Assembly (NCBI GenBank): GCA_022771805.1
Contig: JALELM010000008.1
Coordinates: 1 to 64,000, forward strand
Source of the DNA: Veillonellaceae bacterium
GTDB taxonomy: Bacteria > Bacillota > Negativicutes > Veillonellales > Negativicoccaceae
Direction of reading: 5' to 3'
DNA length: 64,000 nucleotides
The notes under the pieces were generated by a model. The model saw nothing but the letters and a program-made list of their open reading frames with translations. It ran no database searches and was not told the DNA's origin. A program made the translations under genes and the position numbers. Positions 154 through 26,852 of this stretch are shown piece by piece (the first letter of the stretch is position 1; every line of letters begins with the position of its first letter).

Positions 154-390
154 ATGAAAGTTTGTTACGATAAGCTTTGGAAACTTTTAATAGATAAGAA
201 GATGAAAAAAACTGATTTAATCCGAGAAGCGAAGATAAGTTCTAATGTTTTGGCTAAAATGGGGAAAGAGGAGTCGGTGTCTTTGGAAAGTATCGGAAAG
301 ATATGTGCCATGTTAGGTTGCAATGTTGACGATATATTAGAATTTCGGTTGCCAGAGCAAATAGTAACCGACAGCGGAGATAAAAATTGA
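154..390 (+). CDS. XRE/Cro-type helix-turn-helix regulator
   Basis: A 78-residue protein made almost entirely of one Cro/CI-type helix-turn-helix domain: an N-terminal helix (about 5-15), a KKTDLIREAKIS turn region (about 18-30), then recognition and support helices ending in CAMLGCNVDDILEF (about 51-64). GGAGGT at 143-148 sets the ATG. The stop overlaps the start of the methyltransferase gene, so the two are co-transcribed. Small regulators of this kind commonly sit directly before DNA methyltransferase genes and act as control proteins for restriction-modification genes; that role here is inference from position. The DNA is AT-rich like the rest of the island. Confidence 0.85.
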   Translation: MKVCYDKLWKLLIDKKMKKTDLIREAKISSNVLAKMGKEESVSLESIGKICAMLGCNVDDILEFRLPEQIVTDSGDKN

Positions 391-2249
391 TGAGATATTT
401 AGGAAATAAAGAGTCGATATTGACTGAAATAAGTGATTTACTTGAATCACAAGGGCTATTAAAAGAAGGATATACATTTTTTGATGCTTTTTGTGGTTCT
501 GGTTCTGTGGCAGATTATTTTAAATCATATTATAATATCATTATAAATGACAATTTGACATGGTCTGTAAAATATGCAAAAGGTCGTGTTTGCGCCCCAG
601 TCTGTACTTTTGAAACATTGGGTTTTGATCCGTTTGAATACTTGAATTCAAATGAAAACATAGTTCAAGGCTTTATGTATAAGAACTATGCACCTACAGA
701 AAGTGCAAGAATGTACTTTACGCCGGAAAATGCTGGAAGAATAGATTATTTTCGAAAGCAAATCGAAGATTGGAAAAATGCTAATCTTCTTTTGGAAGAA
801 GAATACTGTTATTTACTTGCGTGTCTCATAGAATCCGTTTCTGATGTATCAAACACAGCAGGTGTTTATGGAGCATTTCTTAAGAAATGGGATTCAAGAG
901 CTACGAAAAAAATTATGTTCAACAAAGTTGATTTTCAACCTGAGAAGCATAAGTCGATAAGAACATATAATGCAAAAATTGAGGATATCATCGAAGAAAT
1001 AGAGTGTGACATTCTATATTTAGATCCTCCGTATACACAGAATCAGTATGGTACACAGTATCATCTGTTAGAAACGCTTGTGCTTGACGATAATCCTTCT
1101 ATTAGTAAAGTTACAGGTTCTCGAAGTACGGCACCTATGCGCTCTGATTGGTCAAAAGAATATAAGGCTAATATTTTGTTTGACCGTATTCTTGCGAAAA
1201 CAAAGGCAAAATACATTATTTTGAGCTATAATAATGATGGTTTTATGTCTAAGGAATACATTGAAGCGGCTATGAAACGCTATGGTAAACCGGAAACTTA
1301 CGTGTGCAAGAAAATAGCATATAAAAAATACAAAAACTGGAAATCTCAGAATGAGAATAAACATTTTGAATATCTTTTTTTTGTAGAGAAGAAGGAGATT
1401 TCTAATGTGATTTTTGAATGTCCGTTGAATTATATTGGTAGTAAAGCCAAGGTTATCCCAGATATTTTAAAATTCCAGCCAAGAAACTACGATACATTTA
1501 TAGATGCATTTGGTGGTGGATTTAATGTTGGAATCAATATTTGTACAGACAAAATAATATATAATGATTTGAATTATTTGGTTGCAAATTTGATTCAATC
1601 ATTTAGAGAATATGATACATACAACTATCTGCTTTATATAAAACGTATTATCAAAAAGTTTGGATTGGAAAAAGCAAATGGATCAGCGTATCTGGAAGCA
1701 AGAAGCTACTATAATTCTCTTCCGCCAGAAAAAAGAGATTCTAGATTACTATTTACCATTATTATGTATGGATTTCAGCAGCAGATACGATTTAACAGCC
1801 AACATGACTTCAATAATCCTGTAGGGATGCGATGGTTTAACGATAAGATTTTAGAAAAAATGATTAGTTTCTCAAGGAAGATAAAAGAGGGAAATTATGA
1901 GTTTTACTGTCAAAACTATAAAGAGTTAAGAAACCAAATGACCCAATCTTCTTTTGTATATTTTGATCCGCCGTATAATTTGACTACGGGCACGTACAAT
2001 GATGGGAAAAGAGGTTTTGCTGGGTGGAATAAAGAACTTGAAACGGAATTATTTACGTTTGCTGATGAATTGAATCAATCAGGTGTATCATTTATGTTAT
2101 CCTATGTGGTTGAACATAAGGGCGTAATCAATCAGGAATTGCTGGATTGGATAAATAAAAGAGGGTATCGTCTTATTCAGCTTGGTGACGTTATTGGAAT
2201 TTCTGGCAGTCGAAGAAAGGAGGTTTTGATTGTAAATTATGGAATATAG
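390..2249 (+). CDS. Fused double D12-class DNA adenine methyltransferase
   Basis: Two complete Dam/D12 N6-adenine methyltransferase domains in one chain of about 619 residues. Domain 1 has the AdoMet-binding motif DAFCGSGS near residues 32-39 and the catalytic DPPY near 212-215. Domain 2 restarts with NYIGSK near 347, has DAFGGG near 372-377 and DPPY near 526-529. Fusions of two D12 domains are known from M.FokI-type enzymes, where each half methylates one strand of an asymmetric site, so this is probably the protective enzyme of a type IIS-like system. The open frame begins with TTG at 387, but ATG at 390, overlapping the regulator stop, is preferred. The next gene overlaps its 3' end and encodes the probable endonuclease. 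The recognition sequence cannot be read from the protein. Confidence 0.88.
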   Translation: MRYLGNKESILTEISDLLESQGLLKEGYTFFDAFCGSGSVADYFKSYYNIIINDNLTWSVKYAKGRVCAPVCTFETLGFDPFEYLNSNENIVQGFMYKNYAPTESARMYFTPENAGRIDYFRKQIEDWKNANLLLEEEYCYLLACLIESVSDVSNTAGVYGAFLKKWDSRATKKIMFNKVDFQPEKHKSIRTYNAKIEDIIEEIECDILYLDPPYTQNQYGTQYHLLETLVLDDNPSISKVTGSRSTAPMRSDWSKEYKANILFDRILAKTKAKYIILSYNNDGFMSKEYIEAAMKRYGKPETYVCKKIAYKKYKNWKSQNENKHFEYLFFVEKKEISNVIFECPLNYIGSKAKVIPDILKFQPRNYDTFIDAFGGGFNVGINICTDKIIYNDLNYLVANLIQSFREYDTYNYLLYIKRIIKKFGLEKANGSAYLEARSYYNSLPPEKRDSRLLFTIIMYGFQQQIRFNSQHDFNNPVGMRWFNDKILEKMISFSRKIKEGNYEFYCQNYKELRNQMTQSSFVYFDPPYNLTTGTYNDGKRGFAGWNKELETELFTFADELNQSGVSFMLSYVVEHKGVINQELLDWINKRGYRLIQLGDVIGISGSRRKEVLIVNYGI

Positions 2250-2895
2250 AAATATACCGCATTTCGTGATTAAAGCTAATCTTCAAAAATCAAAAAATAC
2301 AGGTGTTTACTTTAGCGATGTTGTTACCCCGGAAGTACTGAGAGATGTTTGTTACCGAATTACGGGTCAAACAGATTTCACACATGAGTATGTTGACAAT
2401 GAATATCAAGACATGTTTTTGGAAAAATCATACAATAAAGGGCGTATGGCTATCATGCAGTATAAAGATATCGTTAGTTATATCAGTTTTTCAGAACTGG
2501 AAATCGGAGGGAGAAATTCCAGTGTTCAGAGTGTGCCGACTGCCTTCAATATGTATTATAGTAATTCGTACCCCAAAAAACGTTTGTATTATTACTTTTT
2601 AAATGTTTCAGGAAATGCAGAGACTGATTATCAGATTTTGATTTATCGTCTGATGAATACTATTGGATTTGAATTTCTGAATGCGAGCGAGAACTTGCTT
2701 ATGCGAATTCGGAGGTTTAATTCTGTTGAAGATATTATATTTAACAGAAAAATTAATGCGGGAAGAAACAGAAGTAATAATTCCACTTTTATTACTAAAG
2801 GACATGCGGGTGAAATTGAAATTTATGGAAAAACATATGGTGCCAACAAATATGAGACAAGTTTAATATGTTATGCATTGTCCAGCTTATGGTAA
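2239..2895 (+). pseudogene. N-terminal half of a probable type II restriction endonuclease, ended by an in-frame stop
   Basis: 218 residues starting at an ATG with AAAGGAGG (2216-2223) upstream and overlapping the end of the methyltransferase gene. The last readable part (GEIEIYGKTYGANKYETSL near 193-211) runs into TAA at 2893-2895. The same frame then stays open through 3441 and encodes an HNH nuclease domain. I read this as the N-terminal part of one roughly 400-residue endonuclease whose gene carries a nonsense mutation, although two separate polypeptides or a sequencing error are possible. I do not recognise the N-terminal domain by itself. Its position next to a double D12 methyltransferase suggests recognition or nuclease function in the same system. 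Confidence 0.7.
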
Positions 2896-3441
2896 CCGGG
2901 ACAGCATATCAAGCTTTATGAGGTACTAGAAGGTGATTTAAAAGAATTGCCTGAAGCAAGCTTAAATGTCATAAAACAAATGGGAATCATTGATGTTGTT
3001 CCGACTGATATGACACTTGAAAAGAGAATCTATGATGGCAAAGAGACTAGTCTACGTTCTCCTAGATATACTTACAATTTGTTTAATAAACTTGGGAATA
3101 AACATTGTGCTCTTTGTAATTGTGAAATTCCTGAACTGATTCAAGGTGCACATATTCTTCCGGTTGCGGCAATTAGGAGAATGAATTCGATTCCGCTTGA
3201 AAAGCGGTTGGAATTGGCGTTGGACGGAGATAATGGTTTATGGTTATGTGAAAATCATCATAAGATGTTTGATGAAGGAATGATCTCCTTCGATAATCAT
3301 GGTGCATTATTATTGAGGAATGGCATCGACCAGCGTCATATGAGATTTATTGATGAGACAACTAGGTATAAAGTTTTACCACCTGAATTTTTAACGGATA
3401 AATTTTTGTGGTATCTAGAACAAAGGAAACTCGTGGGATGA
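2896..3441 (+). pseudogene. C-terminal HNH nuclease half of the same endonuclease
   Basis: Same reading frame as the preceding fragment, directly after its TAA. It encodes a classic HNH (beta-beta-alpha metal) domain: CALCNCEI supplies the first Cys pair, GAHILP the first His, and NGLWLCENHHKMFDEG the Asn-His part with a further Cys. The only in-frame start after the stop is TTG at 2947, with no convincing ribosome binding site, so independent translation looks weak. HNH domains of this kind occur at the C-terminus of several type II restriction enzymes. If the stop is real, restriction is probably lost while modification is kept. The codon usage is AT-rich like its neighbours. Confidence 0.75.
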
Positions 3442-3666
3442 TACTATTCTATGTGAGAAAGTGGAAAAATAAATATAGAAACTATAAGATGAGCAAGTTC
3501 GTGAATTTACATAAAAGAAAGACACTTTTTTGCTCATTTATAGCATAAAAGAGATTATTTGCAGATGTTACTTGTTTTTGGAGGGATTAGTAATGAAAAG
3601 TGATAAATTCATAAACAAGATATAGATATCTGAGAAGTATTTAAATGAAGAAAGGATGTGATAAAT
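3442..3666 (+). other. AT-rich spacer before the NTPase gene
   Basis: About 220 bases between the endonuclease gene and the NTPase gene. It contains several short A/T-rich stretches that could serve as promoters but no pair good enough to assign, and no open frame of note. AAAGGA at about 3650-3655 is the ribosome binding site for the ATG at 3667. Confidence 0.4.
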
Positions 3667-6600
3667 ATGGCGGAAAGAACACATCATTTTGAACGATTAA
3701 CACCGATTGACAATATGGATTTGACTGTTTATGAAGAAGCGATAGATTATGCGTTTGATAATTCTGATATAAAGAATGTCGCTATTTCAGGTGCATACAG
3801 TGCAGGTAAAAGCAGCGTTTTGGCTTCATACAAGAAAAAACATAGTGAGTTGCACTTTCTGCATATTTCTCTCGCACGCTTCAAATCTCCAGAGCAAGAT
3901 GATGAGACGGAAGTAAAGGAATCTGTATTAGAGGGTAAGATTCTTAATCAACTGATACATCAAATTCCATCAGCAAGGATACCGCAGACCAATTTTAGAG
4001 TAAAGAAAAGAGTAAGTGCGAAAAGTGTTTTAAAGCCGACAATTGAAGTAGTTCTATTTTTTATTGCAGCTATTTATTTTACTTGTTTTGACATATGGAA
4101 AAGCTATGTAAATACTCTACCTAACAATTGGTTCAAATCTATATTAACACTATCCACACATCAATATGCTTTGATGGTAGACGGAATTTTAATGGTAACA
4201 TTGCTTTTATTTATCGTATATGGGTTAATGCGTGTGCAAAAAAACAAAAATGTTTTTCGTAAACTGAATTTGCAAGGAAATGAAATTGAGATTTTTGAGG
4301 AAAGCGATGATTCTTATTTTGATAAATATCTCAATGAAGTTTTGTATTTATTTGAGAATGCAGATGCGGATGTAATTGTATTTGAGGATATGGATCGTTT
4401 TAATGCAAACAGAATTTTTGAGCGACTTCGTGAAGTAAACACGCTTGCAAATATTCAACTTCAAAAAGAAGATAAAAAGGTTCTTCGCTTTTTTTACTTG
4501 TTGCGTGATGATATTTTTATATCCAAAGATAGGACAAAGTTTTTTGACTATATTGTTCCTGTCGTGCCTGTTGTTGATGGCTCCAATTCCTACGACCAGT
4601 TTATTTCTCATTTCAAAAAAGGAGGGATATTTGAGAAGTTTGATGAAAGTTTTCTGCAAGGCTTATCTTTATACATTGACGATATGCGTCTTTTGAAAAA
4701 CATCTACAATGAATTTGTGGTTTATTTTAACAGGCTGAATATTACAGAACTTGATTGTAATAAGATGCTTGCCATTATCGCATATAAAAACCTATTTCCA
4801 CGTGATTTTGCTGATTTACAGCTTAATCAAGGATTTGTATATACTCTTTTTGATAGTAAAGAATTATTCATTAAAGAAGAATCAGAAAACCTTTCTGAAA
4901 AAAATTCTGAAGTACTTCATAAAATCGAATTGGCTAAAAATGAACATCTTAAAACAATCAAAGAGTTGGATGCTGCATTTGAAGATAAAAAGTCGATTGA
5001 TTATTGGAATAGAAAACAAGAATTGAGTGCAGCTGATAAAAAGGATTATGCCGAACGAAAGCAAGCAATAGAGAACCGCTTAAATAATACTATTCCAGAT
5101 TTAGAGAGCGCAAAGTTATCACTGGAACAAGAATTGATTTTAACACAAAACAAACCTCTCTCGGATATTATTACAAGAGATAATATTAACAAAATATTCA
5201 GCATTACAAGTACAAATGAAATCGGGTATGTAACAGAGTTTAACGAGATAAAGAGTAGCGAATATTTTGATCTCTTAAAATATCTTATTCGCAATGGATA
5301 TATTGATGAAACTTATGCTGACTATATGACTTATTTTTACGAGAATAGTCTAAGCCGTGTTGATAAAACTTTCCTACGAAGTATAACCGATAAAAGAGCC
5401 AAAGAATATACCTATAAATTGAAAGAGCCAAAGTTAGTGGTTTCACGCCTTAGATTAGTGGATTTCGACCAAGAGGAAACTCTCAATTTTGACCTATTCA
5501 CATATTTGCTCCAGACTTCTCATATCGACTATACAGTAAGATTGATTAATCAACTAAAAGACACAAAGAATTTCAAATTTATAGGTGCTTATTTTGATAC
5601 AACAGTTGAATTGTCAGCCTATATTAAATACTTAAATATGAGTTGGTCAGAAGTATTTTCAATAGCCCTTAGCGAATGGCTACTGACCGAAAATCAAATA
5701 CGCAGATATTCGATTTGTTCTCTTTATTATTCTGACGACGATATTATTGAATTAGTCAATAAAGAAAACTGCTTATGTGACTATATTTCCAATGCACGTG
5801 ACTACCTTGCAATAGATAATCCTGACATTGATAGATTGATTCATTGTTTTACGCTGCTTGGAGTATGTTTCATAGGTTTTGACTACGCAGAACTAAACAA
5901 GGATTTGTTTCGTGCTGTTTATGAAAAATCTTTGTACGAAATCAATACAGAAAATCTGCAACTTATTCAAAGAGAAATCTTAGATGAAAAGAATGAGGCT
6001 GATTTTTTTCACAAGAATTACACGCTATTATATTCGCACCCTGATTCTGCAATAACGCAATATGTCAATCGGAATGTCAATGAGTATTTTGATGTTGTTT
6101 TGCAGATAAGCGGAGGAACTATTCTTGATGACGAAAAGGTAGTTGTTGCTATATTAAATAATTCTGATCTTACTATTGAGCATAAACAATCATATATTTC
6201 TGCTCTGCGAACAATCATTGCTTCTATAAAAGAGATTGAGGATAGTTCCTTATGGGTATCATTGCTAGATGCTGATATAGTACAGTATTCAGAGTATAAT
6301 ATTATGGATTGTTTTAATATTGTGAAGCTCAATGAAAGCGTCATTTCTTATATCAACAGATGTGATATTGATTTGAATTTTTCAAAAACGGAATATGATG
6401 AAGATACCAAAGAAAAACTATTCGATAGTGCGATTATATGCAATGATATCAATAATTCCAAGTACAAACAGATATTGGTGTCATTAGAGTTTTTTTATGA
6501 TAATTTTGATATCGCAGAGATTGCCGATGATAAGATCATTATCTTAATAGATACAGACATTATTAGAATGACAGCTGATAACTTGAAATTTATGCGTGAA

Positions 6601-7275
6601 AATTATTTAAACTTGAAATTTTATTTTATCCGTAAGAATATAGAAAAGTATATTGATATAATGGATGACGCTCTGTTTTCGCAGGAAGAATTGTTAGAGA
6701 TACTTATTTGGGACATTAGCGATGAACTAAAAATCCAATTGCTTGAATTTTCTAATAATGAAATTTCAATAATCGGGAAAAATTATTCTCCTGTTATATG
6801 TTTGCATATTCTTAATAATAATTTTTCGGAATCTGATTTATCGGAGTTGTTTTCATCATTTGAGCAATGGGATGGCTCTATCCAAGCAAAAATATTTGAT
6901 TATGCAGTGAAAAATATAGAAAGTATCATGGATAACCCAATCTCTGTTTCGGAGAAATTAAAAAATAATCTGCTCCATTCAGATAAGGTGAGTCGAGATA
7001 AAAAAATTGATTTCTTAATAGCAATAATGCCTGAGTTATGTAGGGATAGTATAAAAGAGATTCTTACCTTGCTTAACTTAATGGACTATCTCAAAATATT
7101 TGATACTCGCAGTAGACCCAAGTTTGAAATCAATGATGAAAATGAAAAACTACTTACTGCTTTCAAAGAAAACAATTTGATTGATTCTTATCAAGAAAAT
7201 CCTGAAAAGGAGGGCTATTACAAAATTATCAGATTTAAACCGGCAATGAAGACGTTGCCTCAAGAACTATTGTAA
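3667..7275 (+). CDS. Large membrane-anchored YobI-like P-loop NTPase
   Basis: About 1,202 residues. The N-terminal part reads as a YobI/KAP-like P-loop ATPase: Walker A GAYSAGKSS near residues 42-50 and Walker B VIVFEDMDR near 236-244. Two hydrophobic segments lie between them, about 127-143 (VVLFFIAAIYF) and 170-188 (MVTLLLFIVYGL), which would insert the NTPase in the inner membrane. A charged, coiled-coil-like stretch follows (about 400-500), then a long helical C-terminal region with no motif I recognise. The open frame begins with GTG at 3658, but AAAGGA is then only two bases away; ATG at 3667 has normal spacing. Membrane KAP-type NTPases are frequent in anti-phage islands, and the restriction genes next door make a defence role plausible (inference). 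No partner gene follows it. Confidence 0.75.
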   Translation: MAERTHHFERLTPIDNMDLTVYEEAIDYAFDNSDIKNVAISGAYSAGKSSVLASYKKKHSELHFLHISLARFKSPEQDDETEVKESVLEGKILNQLIHQIPSARIPQTNFRVKKRVSAKSVLKPTIEVVLFFIAAIYFTCFDIWKSYVNTLPNNWFKSILTLSTHQYALMVDGILMVTLLLFIVYGLMRVQKNKNVFRKLNLQGNEIEIFEESDDSYFDKYLNEVLYLFENADADVIVFEDMDRFNANRIFERLREVNTLANIQLQKEDKKVLRFFYLLRDDIFISKDRTKFFDYIVPVVPVVDGSNSYDQFISHFKKGGIFEKFDESFLQGLSLYIDDMRLLKNIYNEFVVYFNRLNITELDCNKMLAIIAYKNLFPRDFADLQLNQGFVYTLFDSKELFIKEESENLSEKNSEVLHKIELAKNEHLKTIKELDAAFEDKKSIDYWNRKQELSAADKKDYAERKQAIENRLNNTIPDLESAKLSLEQELILTQNKPLSDIITRDNINKIFSITSTNEIGYVTEFNEIKSSEYFDLLKYLIRNGYIDETYADYMTYFYENSLSRVDKTFLRSITDKRAKEYTYKLKEPKLVVSRLRLVDFDQEETLNFDLFTYLLQTSHIDYTVRLINQLKDTKNFKFIGAYFDTTVELSAYIKYLNMSWSEVFSIALSEWLLTENQIRRYSICSLYYSDDDIIELVNKENCLCDYISNARDYLAIDNPDIDRLIHCFTLLGVCFIGFDYAELNKDLFRAVYEKSLYEINTENLQLIQREILDEKNEADFFHKNYTLLYSHPDSAITQYVNRNVNEYFDVVLQISGGTILDDEKVVVAILNNSDLTIEHKQSYISALRTIIASIKEIEDSSLWVSLLDADIVQYSEYNIMDCFNIVKLNESVISYINRCDIDLNFSKTEYDEDTKEKLFDSAIICNDINNSKYKQILVSLEFFYDNFDIAEIADDKIIILIDTDIIRMTADNLKFMRENYLNLKFYFIRKNIEKYIDIMDDALFSQEELLEILIWDISDELKIQLLEFSNNEISIIGKNYSPVICLHILNNNFSESDLSELFSSFEQWDGSIQAKIFDYAVKNIESIMDNPISVSEKLKNNLLHSDKVSRDKKIDFLIAIMPELCRDSIKEILTLLNLMDYLKIFDTRSRPKFEINDENEKLLTAFKENNLIDSYQENPEKEGYYKIIRFKPAMKTLPQELL

Positions 7276-7716
7276 TTTGTGATTCACTCAAGAACGGAGA
7301 AAAGAAAGTATGGCTACAAAAAGATGATATTTTCTTAAAATGTAGCGAGCAAAGTATGTTTTTAGAGATTGATTTTCTAAGCAGAAACGCTTATAATTTG
7401 AATCGGAACATATTGCTATTATCCACAGTTATAGAGTATGTGTTATCAATGCCGATAACAAAATGATAACATTAGCTCGTATAGGCAGGATAATATGGAT
7501 AAATCAAATAATCAAAAGAATTACAAACATGACAACAAATAATCTCTAAACAAAATTGATTAGTAATTGTCGAGTGGGAGTGAGGGGAGAAATTGCTGCT
7601 GCGGGATCGTGGTGTGTGGCGAAGGTAGACGGTATCAGATTGTCACGTAGTGGTGACGAAATGTGTATTGAGTGTTGAGCAGATCGGGTGCGATCGGAGA
7701 AAAAGGAGGCGGAGTC
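7276..7716 (+). other. Right edge of the AT-rich island
   Basis: About 440 bases without a supported gene. The first 280 remain AT-rich; a start-less frame (about 7244-7466) includes the readable stretch ICDSLKNGEKKVWLQKDD and may be the tail of a lost gene. Composition changes abruptly near 7,560 from AT-rich to G-rich, marking the island boundary. I see no tRNA, integrase or clear attachment repeat at this edge. AAGGAGG at about 7703-7709 belongs to the next gene. Confidence 0.55.
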
Positions 7717-20393: not shown

Positions 20394-21977
20394 ATGGCGG
20401 AACACGTGAGCCGATCCAGCAAGGAAACCATGCAACGTGCAGAGTTGCACAAAAAAATCTGGGCGATTGCCGATAATGTGCGGGGAGCGGTAGACGGCTG
20501 GGACTTCAAGCAATACGTCCTGGGGATTTTGTTTTATCGCTTTATTTCTGAAAATCTTACTGAGTATTTTAATAAAGGAGAACATGCCAGCGGAAATTTA
20601 GACTTCGAGTATGCGAACATTTCCGACGAGCTTGCGGAGCGGGATTTTCGTCCGGACACCGTGGAAGACAAAGGCTTTTTCATTTTGCCGAGTCAATTGT
20701 TCGCCAATGTGGTCAAAGCGGCACCGACTAATGAAAACCTGAACGTCGATCTGGCGAATGTATTCCGAGATATCGAAGGAAGCGCCGTCGGCTACCCTTC
20801 CGAAGATGATATCAAGGGACTGTTCGAAGACATGGATACCACGAGCAACCGGCTGGGAGGGACGGTCGCAGAAAAGAACAAGCGACTTACCGATATACTC
20901 ACTGGTATCGCTTCTATCCGTTTCGCTGATTTCCGCAATAACGACATCGACGCATTCGGCGACGCCTATGAATACCTGATCTCGAACTATGCCAGCAATG
21001 CCGGCAAATCCGGGGGCGAATTCTTCACTCCGCAGACGGTATCCAAGCTGTTGGCGCGATTGGTCATGGACGGGCAAAAAGAGGTCAACAAGGTCTATGA
21101 CCCCACTTGCGGCAGCGGCAGCTTGCTTTTGCAAATGAAGAAACAGTTTGAAGAGCACATCATTGACGAAGGTTTCTTCGGGCAGAAAATCAATATGACC
21201 AATTTCAACTTGGCGCGTATGAATATGTTCCTGCATAATGTGAATTACAATAACTTTTCTATTAAACGGGGCGATACGCTGCTCAATCCCCAACATCAGG
21301 AAGAGAAACCGTTTGATGCGATCGTGTCCAATCCGCCGTATGGGCTTAAATGGGTGGGAGATGCCGATCCGACGTTGATCAATGACGAGCGATTTAGCCC
21401 GGCGGGTGTATTGGCACCGAAGTCCAAGGCGGACTATGCCTTCATCATGCACGCGCTGCACTACCTCTCCAGTCAGGGACGGGCGGCGATCGTCTGCTTC
21501 CCGGGCATTTTCTACCGCAAGGGCGCGGAAAAGAAGATCCGCCAATACCTTGCGGACAATAACTTCATCGACTGCGTGATCGATCTCCCGCCGAATCTGT
21601 TTTTCGGCACGTCCATTCCCACCTGCATCCTCGTCTTGGCGAAGAACAAGACGGAAAACAAGGTGCTCTTCATCGACGCGAGCCGGGAATTCAAAAAAGA
21701 AACGAACAACAATATCCTGGAAGAAAGCAATATCGAACAGATCGTCGCGGCCTTCCGCGAACGGACGGATACGGAATACTTTTCCCGCTATGTCGACAAA
21801 GCGGAAATCGAAGCGAATGACTACAACCTCTCCGTATCGACCTATGTGGAAAAGGAAGACACGCGCGAACGGATCGACATCCGGGCATTGAATCGGGAGA
21901 TCGCAACGACCGTCGCCAACATCGACAGACTGCGCGCGGCGATCGACGAAATCGTAAAGGAGCTTTCCGATGAGTAA
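20394..21977 (+). CDS. hsdM: Type I restriction-modification methyltransferase subunit HsdM
   Basis: N6-adenine methyltransferase subunit; with HsdS it methylates the bipartite target, with HsdR it forms the restriction complex. 527 residues, the EcoR124 (type IC) size. The N-terminal HsdM helical domain is recognisable ([26 protein letters not shown]). AdoMet motif [13 protein letters not shown] lies near 234-246 and catalytic NPPY near 310-313. It overlaps hsdS by eight bases, so translation is coupled. A diverged fragment of another hsdM lies at 27131-27267. Confidence 0.95.
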
Positions 21978-22562
21978 GATGGCAGAGTTGCTGCACGGCG
22001 AACAAGTGGAATGGAAGAAATTGGATCTTCTGTTGGATTATGAGCAGCCGACAAAATACATCGTTAAGTCAACGGAGTATGACGATAGCTATGCGACACC
22101 TGTTTTAACGGCGGGGAAAAGCTTTATTTTGGGATTTACGAATGAAACGGAAAACATATATGTTGCAAGTAAAGAGCAACCCGTCATTATTTTTGATGAT
22201 TTTACAGCCGGCAACCAGTGGGTAGATTTTAGCTTTAAGATTAAATCTTCCGCAATGAAAATATTGAAGCCTAAAGAGGGAGTAAATCTGAGGTATTGTT
22301 ATCACTGTATTCAAACTATCAATATAGATGTTACGGAACACAAACGACTATGGATTTCAAAGTTCTCACAAATTGAAATTCCAGTTCCCTCACTTAAAGT
22401 TCAAGAAAAGATCGTAGAAACACTTGACAAATTCACCGATTGTGTTACTGAATTACAGGCTGAATTACAGGCACGTTCCAAGCAATACGAGTATTATCGG
22501 GACATGCTCCTGAGCGAGGAATATTTGAATAAATTAGCCGAACAACTTGAAAATGAGGGGGG

Positions 22563-22578
<16 letters not shown>
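21970..22578 (+). CDS. hsdS: HsdS specificity subunit, module 1 (half-subunit in the sequenced phase)
   Basis: 202 residues: one target-recognition domain (about 10-145) followed by a conserved helical spacer ([14 protein letters not shown], then [12 protein letters not shown] near 169-180). The spacer contains a 12-bp tandem repeat giving ELQA twice. A normal HsdS has two such modules in about 400 residues. Here the frame stops at TAA (22576-22578), just past a G6 tract (22557-22562). One extra G would continue into module 2, giving 412 residues. Half-HsdS proteins are known to pair and give a symmetric target, so this short form may be active. Alternative: frameshift mutation or sequencing error in the G run. 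Confidence 0.9.
22450..22473 (+). repeat. 12-bp tandem repeat in the HsdS spacer (two copies)
   Basis: GAATTACAGGCT followed by GAATTACAGGCA, in frame, encoding Glu-Leu-Gln-Ala twice in the helical spacer after recognition domain 1. In EcoR124/EcoDXXI enzymes a 12-bp, four-residue spacer repeat (Thr-Ala-Glu-Leu) changes copy number and alters the gap length in the recognised sequence. The similarity in place, length and composition is the basis for the call. Confidence 0.8.
22557..22562 (+). repeat. G6 homopolymer at the hsdS module 1/2 frame break
   Basis: Six G starting immediately after an out-of-frame TGA (22554-22556). The frames of modules 1 and 2 overlap only at 22557-22578, so the shift joining them must fall here, and the G tract is the only slippage-prone sequence in that interval. 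Adding one G, or removing two, joins the modules. Confidence 0.85.
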
Positions 22579-23831
<1,253 letters not shown>

Positions 23832-23857
<26 letters not shown>

Positions 23858-26852
23858 TACTTCCGCGATTGCGGAGATGACGAACGGGATCATCTTGGCG
23901 CGTTTTGATAAGGAAAGGGGAACGCGGGAGACGACATACCAGACGGAAGCGGAGTTGGAGCGGCGGTTGCTGGCGGATCTCGTTTCGCAGGGGTATGCGC
24001 CCGTGGAGGTTCGGTCGCAGGAGGAGCTGTATGCGAATCTGAAGGTGCAGCTGGAGCGGCTGAACGGGGTGTCGTTTTCCGCGTCGGAATGGGGCCGGTT
24101 TTTGCGTGAGTATTTGGACGCGCCGAATGACGGCATGGTGGAAAAGACGCGCAAGGTGCAGGAGGATCATGTGTATGATTTCACCTTTGACAGCGGCGAG
24201 TTGCGGAATATCCGGATCATCGACAAGGCGAATATTCATCACAATTTTTTGCAGGTCACGCATCAGGTCAGTCAGACGGGGCGGCATCGCAATCGGTATG
24301 ATGTGACGATACTGGTGAACGGGTTGCCGCTGGTGCATGTCGAGCTGAAGAAGCGCGGCACGAATTTGCACGAGGCGTTCAATCAGATTCACCGGTACAG
24401 CAAGGAGAGTTTTAACGCGGACAATTCGCTGTACAAGTATGTGCAGCTGTTCGTGATTTCCAACGGCACGTATACGCGGTATTTTGCCAATACGACGGCG
24501 CAGAGTAAGAATAATTACGAGTTCACGTGTGAATGGGCGGATGCGAAGAATAAGACGATTTGCGATTTGGCGGATTTCACGCGGACGTTTTTCGAGAAGC
24601 GTGTTTTGTTGGAAGTGTTGACGAAGTATTGTATTTTCGATGTGAATGATACCTTGCTGGTGATGCGGCCGTATCAGATCGCCGCGACGGAGCGGATTTT
24701 GTGGAAGATTCGGTCCGGGTATGAGATGAAGAAGGCGGGGCGGCCGGAAGCGGGCGGGTTCGTCTGGCATACTACGGGGTCGGGGAAGACGCTGACTTCG
24801 TTCAAGGCGGCGAAGTTGGCGACGGGGCTGGAGTTCATCGACAAGGTGTTTTTCGTGGTGGATCGGAAGGATCTCGATTACCAGACGATGAAGGAGTACC
24901 AGCGGTTTCAGCCGGACAGCGTGAACGGGAGCAAGGACACGAAGGAGCTGAAGCGGTGTATCGAGAAGAATGATAATCGCATCGTCGTGACGACGATTCA
25001 GAAGTTGAATGAGTTCGTGAAGAAGAATCCGGGGCATCCGATTTATGACCGGCATTGTGTGCTGATCTATGACGAGTGTCACCGTTCGCAGTTCGGCGAC
25101 GCGCAGCGGAATATTCGCCGGGCGTTCCGGAAGTATTACCAGTTCGGGTTCACGGGCACGCCGATTTTCGCGGAGAATTCCGTGAGCGGGGAGACGACGG
25201 CAGGGATTTTCGGGGCGCAGTTGCACAGCTATGTCATCACGGATGCAATCCGTGACGGCAAGGTGCTGAAGTTCAAGGTGGATTACAATAACATCACGCC
25301 GAAGTTCCGCACGGCGGAGCAAGAGGCCGACGAGCAGCCGCCGGCGCTGCCGGAGAGCAGGCTGTTGCTGCATCCGGAGCGGGTGCGGGAGATCACGAAG
25401 CATATTTTGCAGGTGTTCGACACGAAGACGCACCGGAATCAGTTTTTCAGTGTGGCGGAGCGGCGGCTGAACGGGTTCAATGCGATGTTTGCCGTGCAGA
25501 GTGTGGCGGCGGCGAAGTTGTACTACGAGGAGTTTGCCCGGCAGCAGGCGGACGTGCCGGAGGAAAAGCGGCTGAAGGTGGCGACGATCTACAGTTTCGC
25601 GGCGAACGAGGAGCAACGGGCGATCGGGGAAATCGCCGAGGAGGATTTGGAGGCGACGGCGTTGCAGGCGACGGACAGGGAGTTCCTCGAGCGGGTGATC
25701 GGCGACTACAATGCGCAGTTTCGGACGAATTTCTCCACGGACGGGAACGAGTTCCAGAATTACTACAAGGATTTGTCCTTGCGGGTGAAGGAACGGCAGG
25801 TGGATTTGCTCATTGTCGTGGGGATGTTCCTGACGGGGTTTGACGCGTCGACATTGAACACGCTGTTTGTCGACAAGAACCTCCGGTATCACGGGCTGAT
25901 TCAGGCGTATTCACGGACGAATCGGATTTTGAATAAGGTGAAGACGTTCGGGAATATCGTTTGTTTCCGCGATTTGGAGCGAGCGACACGGGATGCGATC
26001 AAGACATTCGGCGATGAGAAAAGCGTGCATGTGATTCTGGAGCGAAGTTACAAGGACTATCTCCACGGGTTCCGCGACGAGGAGACGGGCGAGGAGCACA
26101 AGGGGTACGCGGAGATTTGCCGCGAGTTGCTCGAGCGGTTTCCGGAGCCGACGGAGATCGTGCTCGATGCGGACAAGAAGGAGTTTGCGAAGCTGTTCGG
26201 GGAATTGCTGAAGGCGGAGAATATTCTCCGGAATTTCGATGAGTTTGCTTCGCTGGAGAAGCCGATTTCCGCGCGGCAGATGCAGGACATGAAGAGCGTC
26301 TACGTAGATATTCGCGAGCAGCTGTTCAAACGGGATCCGGGCGAGTCGGTCGCGCCGACGGTCGATTTTTCGGATGTGGAGTTTCAGATCGATCTCTTGA
26401 AGACGGACGAGATCAATTTGGATTATATTTTGGCGTTGATTTTGGAGAAGTACCGCGAGAACGAGAATATGGATGCTTTGCAGGCCGAGGTGCGCCGCGC
26501 GATTCGTTCCAGTCTCGGCACGCGTGCGAAGGAGGAGCTGATTCTCGACTTTATCCACGGGCAGCCGTTGGGAGAATTGACCGGCACGGACGATATCCTG
26601 GAGGCGTTTTATACCTTTGCGCGGCAGGAAAAGCAGGCGAAGGTTGCGGCGCTGATCGGCGAGGAACAGCTGAAAGCGGGCGCGGATTATTTCATCGAGC
26701 GGGCGATTGCGAAGGGCTACGCGGAGCATGTGGGGGATCAGCTGGATCGCATCATTCCGCCGACTTCCCGACTCGGCGGTGCGCGTGCGAGAAAAAAGGA
26801 AACGGTATTGGAAAAGATCCGCAGACTGGTATCCGTATTCAGCGGGATCTGA
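23832..26852 (+). CDS. hsdR: Type I restriction endonuclease/translocase subunit HsdR
   Basis: Motor and nuclease subunit that translocates and cuts unmodified DNA. About 1,006 residues, EcoR124-like. The N-terminal PD-(D/E)xK nuclease includes VHVELKKRG near 167-175; then superfamily 2 helicase motifs: Walker A TGSGKT near 314-319, DECHRSQFGD near 414-423 and FTGTPIF near 438-444; then the helical C-terminus. The open frame begins at 23628, overlapping hsdS out of frame, but ATG at 23832 with AAGGAG (23818-23823) gives the family start. The gene is full length. Its last 177 bases are repeated at 29236-29412. Confidence 0.94.

What the first reader, a model, noticed from the sequence alone, without database searches (positions are those of the whole stretch)
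3667..7275. Large membrane YobI-like NTPase in the restriction island: candidate defence protein
A P-loop domain interrupted by two membrane segments, followed by roughly 900 residues of helical protein with no recognised motif, lies next to restriction genes in DNA of foreign composition. Single-gene, membrane-anchored NTPases of KAP/YobI type are often found in anti-phage islands. The long C-terminus could be a sensor or effector that has not been described.
Basis: inference. Interest (0 to 1): 0.6.

Follow-up and report, generated by a model that had tools for sequence, protein, structure and literature searches.

The report
Tmn-like membrane NTPase in defence island
The gene encodes a large membrane-anchored ATP-binding protein that travels between bacteria in defence islands and prophages and is a full-length distant relative of Tmn, an anti-phage protein already proven in E. 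coli, so it is probably a single-gene phage-defence protein rather than a new kind of system.

Summary
Window 3667-7275(+) encodes an intact 1202-residue protein (31% GC in a 58% GC genome). It has a YobI-type P-loop domain (Pfam E=7e-122), two membrane helices between Walker A and Walker B, and about 810 further helical residues.

The closest curated defence model is Tmn, a single-gene anti-phage protein proven in E. coli. A plain scan matches only residues 7-434. Profile-profile comparison aligns the two families over 1110 columns (E=4e-84), and the C-termini alone at E=4e-23 (reversed control 0.11). So the C-terminus is not new. It is modelled as a HEAT-like alpha-solenoid with no enzyme fold found, which suggests sensor or scaffold rather than hidden effector.

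The gene is rare, patchy and mobile: 5 of 398 Bacillota genomes, a 98.7%-identical 16-kb element in different Bacillota orders, and a 50%-identical homologue in Qin-like E. coli prophages. Six of its seven closest relatives have nearby Gabija, restriction-modification or candidate defence genes.

Best reading: a Tmn-like, membrane-tethered, NLR-like phage sensor of the YobI branch. Defence is inferred, not shown for this branch. Even Tmn's mechanism is unknown. New member of a known kind; interest moderate.

The parts
3667..7275 (+). YobI/Tmn-family transmembrane P-loop NTPase gene, 1202 aa, 31% GC
   Evidence: single copy in the genome
3730..4842 (+). YobI-ATPase domain PF20693 (residues 22-392), containing both membrane helices
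   Evidence: fold matches ORC/Cdc6/TnsC ATPases with Foldseek probability 1.00 though E only 0.02-0.06
3790..3816 (+). Walker A GAYSAGKSS (residues 42-50); G42, G47, K48 and S49 invariant
4039..4095 (+). membrane helix 1 (residues 125-143)
   Evidence: helix in the model
4171..4227 (+). membrane helix 2 (residues 169-187)
   Evidence: helix in the model
4372..4398 (+). Walker B VIVFEDMDR (residues 236-244); E240, D241, D243 and R244 invariant
4858..5145 (+). long helices, coiled-coil-like and variable (residues 398-493)
   Evidence: model; conservation about 0.3
5182..5526 (+). conserved linker domain (residues 506-620)
   Evidence: conservation 0.63-0.68, dN/dS 0.06-0.11
5527..7101 (+). HEAT-like alpha-solenoid with degenerate internal repeats (residues 621-1145), probable sensor or scaffold
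   Evidence: models; repeat score 31.0 vs at most 18.0 in 6 shuffles; Foldseek; dN/dS 0.10-0.19
7114..7236 (+). small C-terminal strand-helix-hairpin element (residues 1150-1190), wing-like, unassigned
   Evidence: models
154..390 (+). small XRE-like regulator upstream of the restriction genes (associated, not shown to be part of the system); a homologue lies directly before the YobI gene in L014
390..2249 (+). double D12-class type II adenine methyltransferase (island neighbour)
2239..3441 (+). MAG4270-family HNH restriction endonuclease gene interrupted by in-frame TAA at 2893-2895 (island neighbour)
   Evidence: intact single-ORF homologue

Best explanation
The gene is a stand-alone, horizontally moving anti-phage gene of the YobI branch of the Tmn family. 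The protein sits in the inner membrane through a two-helix hairpin inserted in an ORC/Cdc6/TnsC-like P-loop NTPase, with the NTPase and the C-terminal HEAT-like solenoid in the cytoplasm. Most likely mechanism: the solenoid holds the NTPase in a resting state and recognises a phage component or phage-caused change. Recognition permits nucleotide exchange and ring or higher oligomerisation at the membrane, and the assembled complex stops infection, by membrane damage or growth arrest, or by blocking phage DNA at the membrane. Shown here: domain anatomy, intact and conserved nucleotide-binding motifs, full-length homology to Tmn, mobility, defence neighbourhood, purifying selection. Inferred: that this branch defends; that the solenoid senses; the oligomerisation; the effector step, for which nothing here separates membrane damage from DNA blocking. 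The trigger and mechanism of Tmn itself are unsettled in the literature (PMC11846954).
For: Full-length homology to Tmn: hhalign of 51 family members against 5 Tmn-type proteins, probability 100%, E=3.9e-84 over 1110 columns; C-termini alone E=4e-23 over 720 columns; reversed control E=0.11. Intermediates link the two: the Sutcliffiella, Alteromonas and same-order (G032) proteins match the Tmn profile to positions 1004-1095 of 1273, and the first two also align to the window protein over 86-98%. Tmn blocks T2, P1, phiVi and phiX (PMC11846954). Neighbours of the closest relatives: GajA+GajB (L025), two type II methyltransferases (L026), type I RM (L029), candidate defence families PDC-S53, PDC-M22B and PDC-S01 (L027, L028, L058); the window has type II RM. 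Immediate neighbours in about 64 loci hit 426 PADLOC models (up to 6 genes per model) against 175 (up to 2) for genes more than 6.5 kb away. Mobility: DNA similarity to relatives is confined to the gene, 3640-7575; 16 kb at 98.7% identity in Vagococcus, Erysipelothrix and a Clostridiaceae MAG; Enterobacterial prophage copies nested among Bacillota; 32 of 5426 E. coli genomes, all chromosomal, in Qin-like prophages where examined. Selection: dN/dS 0.02-0.07 in the NTPase core, 0.10-0.19 in the solenoid.
Against: No member of this branch was tested here, and I found no paper that names YobI as a defence gene. Sequence identity to Tmn is only 22% overall and 16% in the C-terminus. The plain PADLOC scan covers only the NTPase half. 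The neighbour enrichment has a coarse control (more distant genes of the same loci). pTM of the full model is 0.40, so domain placement is not reliable. The ORC/TnsC-like fold match has Foldseek probability 1.00 but E only 0.02-0.06.
Confidence: 0.72

Rival explanations
1. A mobile-element fitness gene unrelated to phage: for example a membrane NTPase that excludes or stabilises competing plasmids or conjugative elements, carried by islands because they are its own hosts.
For: Carried on conjugative and mobilizable plasmids, integrated elements and prophages; integrases are among the neighbours.
Against: Closest relatives lie beside Gabija, RM and candidate defence genes, and the homologous Tmn restricts phages (PMC11846954). 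Plasmid exclusion and phage defence may coincide.
Confidence: 0.12
2. An ordinary DNA-binding ORC/TnsC/QatA-like NTPase of a defence or transposition module whose membrane hairpin only localises it; it needs partner genes and is not a stand-alone system.
For: Fold matches to ORC, Cdc6 and TnsC with DNA (probability 1.00). QatA, also a KAP-family NTPase, binds DNA and forms heptamers or octamers but is dispensable for part of QatABCD defence (PMC13279940).
Against: No partner gene recurs next to it: DNA similarity between relatives is confined to the gene, and the top Pfam family among 124 immediate neighbours occurs in only 4. Tmn works as one gene.
Confidence: 0.08
3. A housekeeping membrane NTPase.
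For: Only its strong conservation and purifying selection.
Against: Absent from the three other genomes of the family at this locus, present in about 1% of Bacillota, foreign composition, cross-order transfer.
Confidence: 0.02
4. A decayed or inactive passenger gene.
For: The adjacent restriction endonuclease gene carries a premature stop.
Against: The NTPase frame is intact, its motifs are complete and dN/dS is 0.12-0.14 overall against five relatives.
Confidence: 0.06

Closest known systems
Tmn (transmembrane NTPase; E. coli example WP_235412070, PADLOC PDLC02220)
   Same: Same order of parts: P-loop with a two-helix membrane hairpin between Walker A and Walker B, then a long helical C-terminus; similar length (1202 vs 1273 aa); full-length profile homology; single gene on mobile DNA.
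   Different: 22% identity overall, 16% in the C-terminus; separate, fully supported clade in the tree; activity, trigger and phage range not known for this branch.
YobI-ATPase family (Pfam PF20693; NCBI name 'YobI family P-loop NTPase')
   Same: Full-profile match, E=7e-122; the 50%-identical E. coli prophage protein WP_001278661 carries this name.
   Different: None found. The family name carries no function, and no paper in the library describes it as defence.
KAP-family NTPases of other defence systems (QatA)
   Different: QatA is one of four proteins and was purified as a DNA-binding oligomer. No operon partner recurs here.
STAND/NLR sensors such as Avs3, NOD2, NLRP9
   Same: General layout of nucleotide-binding switch plus repeat superstructure; they appear among weak fold matches of the full model.
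   Different: No sequence relation found (PADLOC scan lists only Tmn); fold matches E 0.006-0.03 and TM-scores 0.07-0.18; resemblance of layout only.

Membership tests
Tmn anti-phage family | Full-length sequence homology to proven Tmn proteins | tested here: met
   hhalign E=3.9e-84 over 1110 columns and E=4e-23 for C-termini alone, reversed control 0.11; intermediates
Tmn anti-phage family | Match to the PADLOC Tmn model over most of its length by plain hmmscan | tested here: not met
   Residues 7-434 to model positions 25-475 of 1273, E=3.3e-68. The test is limited by divergence; a profile comparison extends it
Tmn anti-phage family | Two membrane segments inside the NTPase domain | tested here: met
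   125-143 and 169-187 here, 158-176 and 200-218 in Tmn, both between Walker A and Walker B
Tmn anti-phage family | Phylogenetic placement inside the Tmn clade | tested here: not met
   the Tmn-type proteins form their own 100-supported clade; the window protein groups with Bacillota YobI proteins. It is therefore a sister branch, not Tmn sensu stricto
Tmn anti-phage family | Restriction of phage plating | not testable with these tools
   needs a phage challenge
YobI-ATPase (PF20693) | Full-profile match above the curated cut-off | tested here: met
   407.9 bits vs 27 cut-off, profile 1-363 of 363
KAP NTPases | P-loop NTPase with membrane segments inserted between Walker A and Walker B | tested here: met
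   definition from the literature as cited in PMC11846954
STAND/Avs sensors | Sequence match to an Avs or STAND model | tested here: not met
   the PADLOC scan to E=10 lists only Tmn and Pfam only YobI-ATPase
STAND/Avs sensors | Works like: NTPase switch plus repeat sensor | tested here: inconclusive
   solenoid model and weak fold matches; no functional test

The most novel reading that the evidence does not exclude
The YobI branch is a functionally distinct defence system within the KAP NTPases: a membrane-tethered, NLR-like receptor whose faster-changing HEAT-like solenoid recognises a phage pattern different from the one Tmn responds to, and whose ORC/TnsC-like NTPase assembles on activation. 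This would make the mechanism of the whole Tmn/YobI group testable in E. coli through the prophage-encoded homologue.
Probability: 0.25. Interest if true: 0.6.

Novelty: new member of a known kind. Interest (0 to 1): 0.35.

Why it matters
It puts the named but functionless YobI family into the proven Tmn anti-phage family over its full length. That supplies a likely function for the E. coli genes annotated 'YobI family P-loop NTPase' in Qin-like prophages and for the hundreds of Bacillota homologues. The E. coli copy can be tested in a laboratory strain, which would give a second, diverged member with which to solve the unknown Tmn mechanism.

Tried and rejected
New C-terminal domain: rejected as stated, since it aligns to the Tmn C-terminus. 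Hidden C-terminal enzyme: no catalytic fold among the fold matches, only HEAT-like solenoids, and no solved relative by sequence. The small C-terminal strand-helix-hairpin element looks like a winged helix, but its element order is not canonical, so it is left unassigned. Linked operon with the restriction genes: rejected, because shared DNA with relatives starts at 3640 and close homologues of these restriction genes are not next to any other copy. Housekeeping: rejected by distribution. Assembly neighbour: the RND efflux operon that precedes the DHH-pcrA-ligA block in relatives lies elsewhere in this genome (C2), so the left border of the island could not be closed. Promoter and terminator scans were at chance and no Rfam match was found. 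The viral structure library gave nothing useful. The full text of the Gao 2020 and Aravind 2004 papers is not held.

Full report
WHAT IS THERE. Window 3667-7275(+) is one intact gene of 1202 codons, single copy in its genome. The window is the first 64 kb of a 181-kb contig, so position 1 is a contig end and the island is cut there. The gene lies in about 7.5 kb of 31-35% GC DNA next to genes of about 58% GC. Upstream are a small XRE-like regulator (154-390), a double D12 methyltransferase (390-2249) and an HNH restriction gene (2239-3441). The last has an in-frame TAA at 2893-2895. A 72%-identical homologue on a Pusillibacter plasmid is a single open frame of the MAG4270 family directly after a methyltransferase gene.

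ANATOMY. PF20693 YobI-ATPase covers residues 22-392. Walker A (42-50), two membrane helices (125-143, 169-187) and Walker B (236-244) follow each other in that order. Across the family, G42, G47, K48, S49, E240, D241, D243 and R244 are invariant. AlphaFold2 with 47 family members gives mean pLDDT 83.7 but pTM 0.40, so the folds of the parts are credible and their arrangement is not. Residues 398-493 form long coiled-coil-like helices, 506-620 a conserved linker domain, and 621-1145 an alpha-solenoid. The C-terminal part modelled alone has pLDDT 89 and pTM 0.66. Degenerate internal repeats are supported by a profile self-alignment (score 31.0 vs at most 18.0 in six column shuffles). Fold searches give ORC/Cdc6/TnsC ATPases for the NTPase (probability 1.00, E about 0.02-0.06) and HEAT-type solenoids, with NLRP9, NOD2 and Avs3 among weak hits, for the whole. 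No enzyme fold stands out in the C-terminus.

RELATIONSHIP TO TMN. The only PADLOC match is Tmn, over residues 7-434. Sutcliffiella, Alteromonas and same-order proteins match the Tmn profile as far as positions 1004-1095 of 1273, and the Sutcliffiella and Alteromonas proteins also align to the window protein over 98% and 86% of its length. Profile-profile comparison settles it: 100% probability, E=3.9e-84 over 1110 columns, and E=4e-23 for the C-termini alone against 0.11 for a reversed control. In a tree of 61 proteins the Tmn proteins form their own clade and the window protein sits among Bacillota YobI proteins, closest to an 83%-identical protein of a Clostridiales MAG (L024). It is therefore a sister branch of Tmn and works, by inference, like Tmn. 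Tmn is a single-gene system restricting T2, P1, phiVi and phiX. Its mechanism was called unexplored in 2025, with phage escape mutations in the DNA-modification gene nmad5 (PMC11846954).

DISTRIBUTION AND MOBILITY. The family is rare: 5 of 398 Bacillota genomes above cut-off, the window's own included, and 4 of 61 genomes of the order, the window's own included, by protein search. It is absent at the orthologous place in the three other genomes of the family, where an RND efflux operon precedes the DHH-pcrA-ligA block. A scan of GTDB genomes gave 369 candidate loci, of which 80 were kept. A 16-kb segment carrying a homologue is 98.7% identical between Vagococcus, Erysipelothrix and a Clostridiaceae MAG, and 10 kb of it is 97.9% identical in a Clostridium. 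Homologues at 50% identity lie in Enterobacterial prophages. One is in 32 of 5426 complete E. coli genomes, all chromosomal; in the two loci read it sits in a Qin-like prophage between ydaT-like and hok-type genes. No relative was found in 50,697 deposited phage records.

DEFENCE CONTEXT. Six of the seven closest relatives have defence or candidate defence genes next to or near the gene: Gabija GajA and GajB (L025), two methyltransferases (L026), PDC-S53 (L027), PDC-M22B/LmuB-like (L028), type I RM (L029), PDC-S01 (L058). L024 has recombinase-like genes and a nearby contig end. Over about 64 loci the immediate neighbours hit 426 PADLOC models against 175 for genes more than 6.5 kb away. In Pfam, N6_Mtase occurs 4 times against 1, and Phage_integrase 4 and DNA_methylase 3 times with no such entry in the 25 families shown for the distant set, which shows mainly household enzymes. 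The two sets are not independent of island size, so this is supportive, not a measured enrichment. DNA similarity to relatives is confined to 3640-7575: the gene itself is the unit that recurs.

SELECTION. Pairwise dN/dS against five relatives is 0.12-0.14 overall, 0.02-0.07 in the Walker B half of the NTPase and 0.10-0.19 in the solenoid. dS is high in several segments, so the absolute numbers are rough. The gene is under purifying selection, with a constrained engine and a more changeable solenoid, as expected for a sensor but also for many scaffolds.

MECHANISM. Shown: the parts, motifs, homology and context. Inferred: membrane anchoring by the hairpin, recognition by the solenoid, nucleotide-dependent assembly, and arrest of infection by membrane damage, growth arrest or blocking of phage DNA. 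The comparison with ORC/TnsC folds and with the DNA-binding oligomer QatA (PMC13279940) keeps the DNA-blocking version open. No result here chooses between them.

VERDICT. Its defence guess is well supported, and its hope of an undescribed C-terminus is not. This is a diverged member of the Tmn kind. The useful outcome is the Tmn-YobI link and a ready test in E. coli.

Noticed in passing
window 2239-3441: The MAG4270-family HNH restriction gene is split by an in-frame TAA (2893-2895), leaving an intact methyltransferase beside a probably dead nuclease (or a sequencing error); a 72%-identical Pusillibacter homologue is intact.
   Followed up: yes
window 20394-26852: Type I restriction-like locus (hsdM, three hsdS-like frames, hsdR) with a (AGCA)9.5 tandem repeat at 23166-23203 at the junction of two hsdS-like frames, a candidate phase-variation switch.
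   Followed up: partly
L041, L042, L069, L086: A segment up to 16 kb at about 98-99% identity with a YobI gene in Vagococcus, Clostridium, Erysipelothrix and a Clostridiaceae MAG: very recent transfer between orders.
   Followed up: partly
L118 and similar plasmid records: A second Tmn-like lineage (38% identical to Tmn, sometimes annotated 'pcar') is common on enterobacterial plasmids and may be missed or undernamed by current annotation.
   Followed up: no
L014:206-391 and window 154-390: A small XRE-like regulator with 53% identity stands directly before a YobI gene in a same-order genome, and before the restriction genes in the window.
   Followed up: no
L010:5920-11016: The Enterococcus faecium plasmid homologue is interrupted by an IS256 element.
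   Followed up: no
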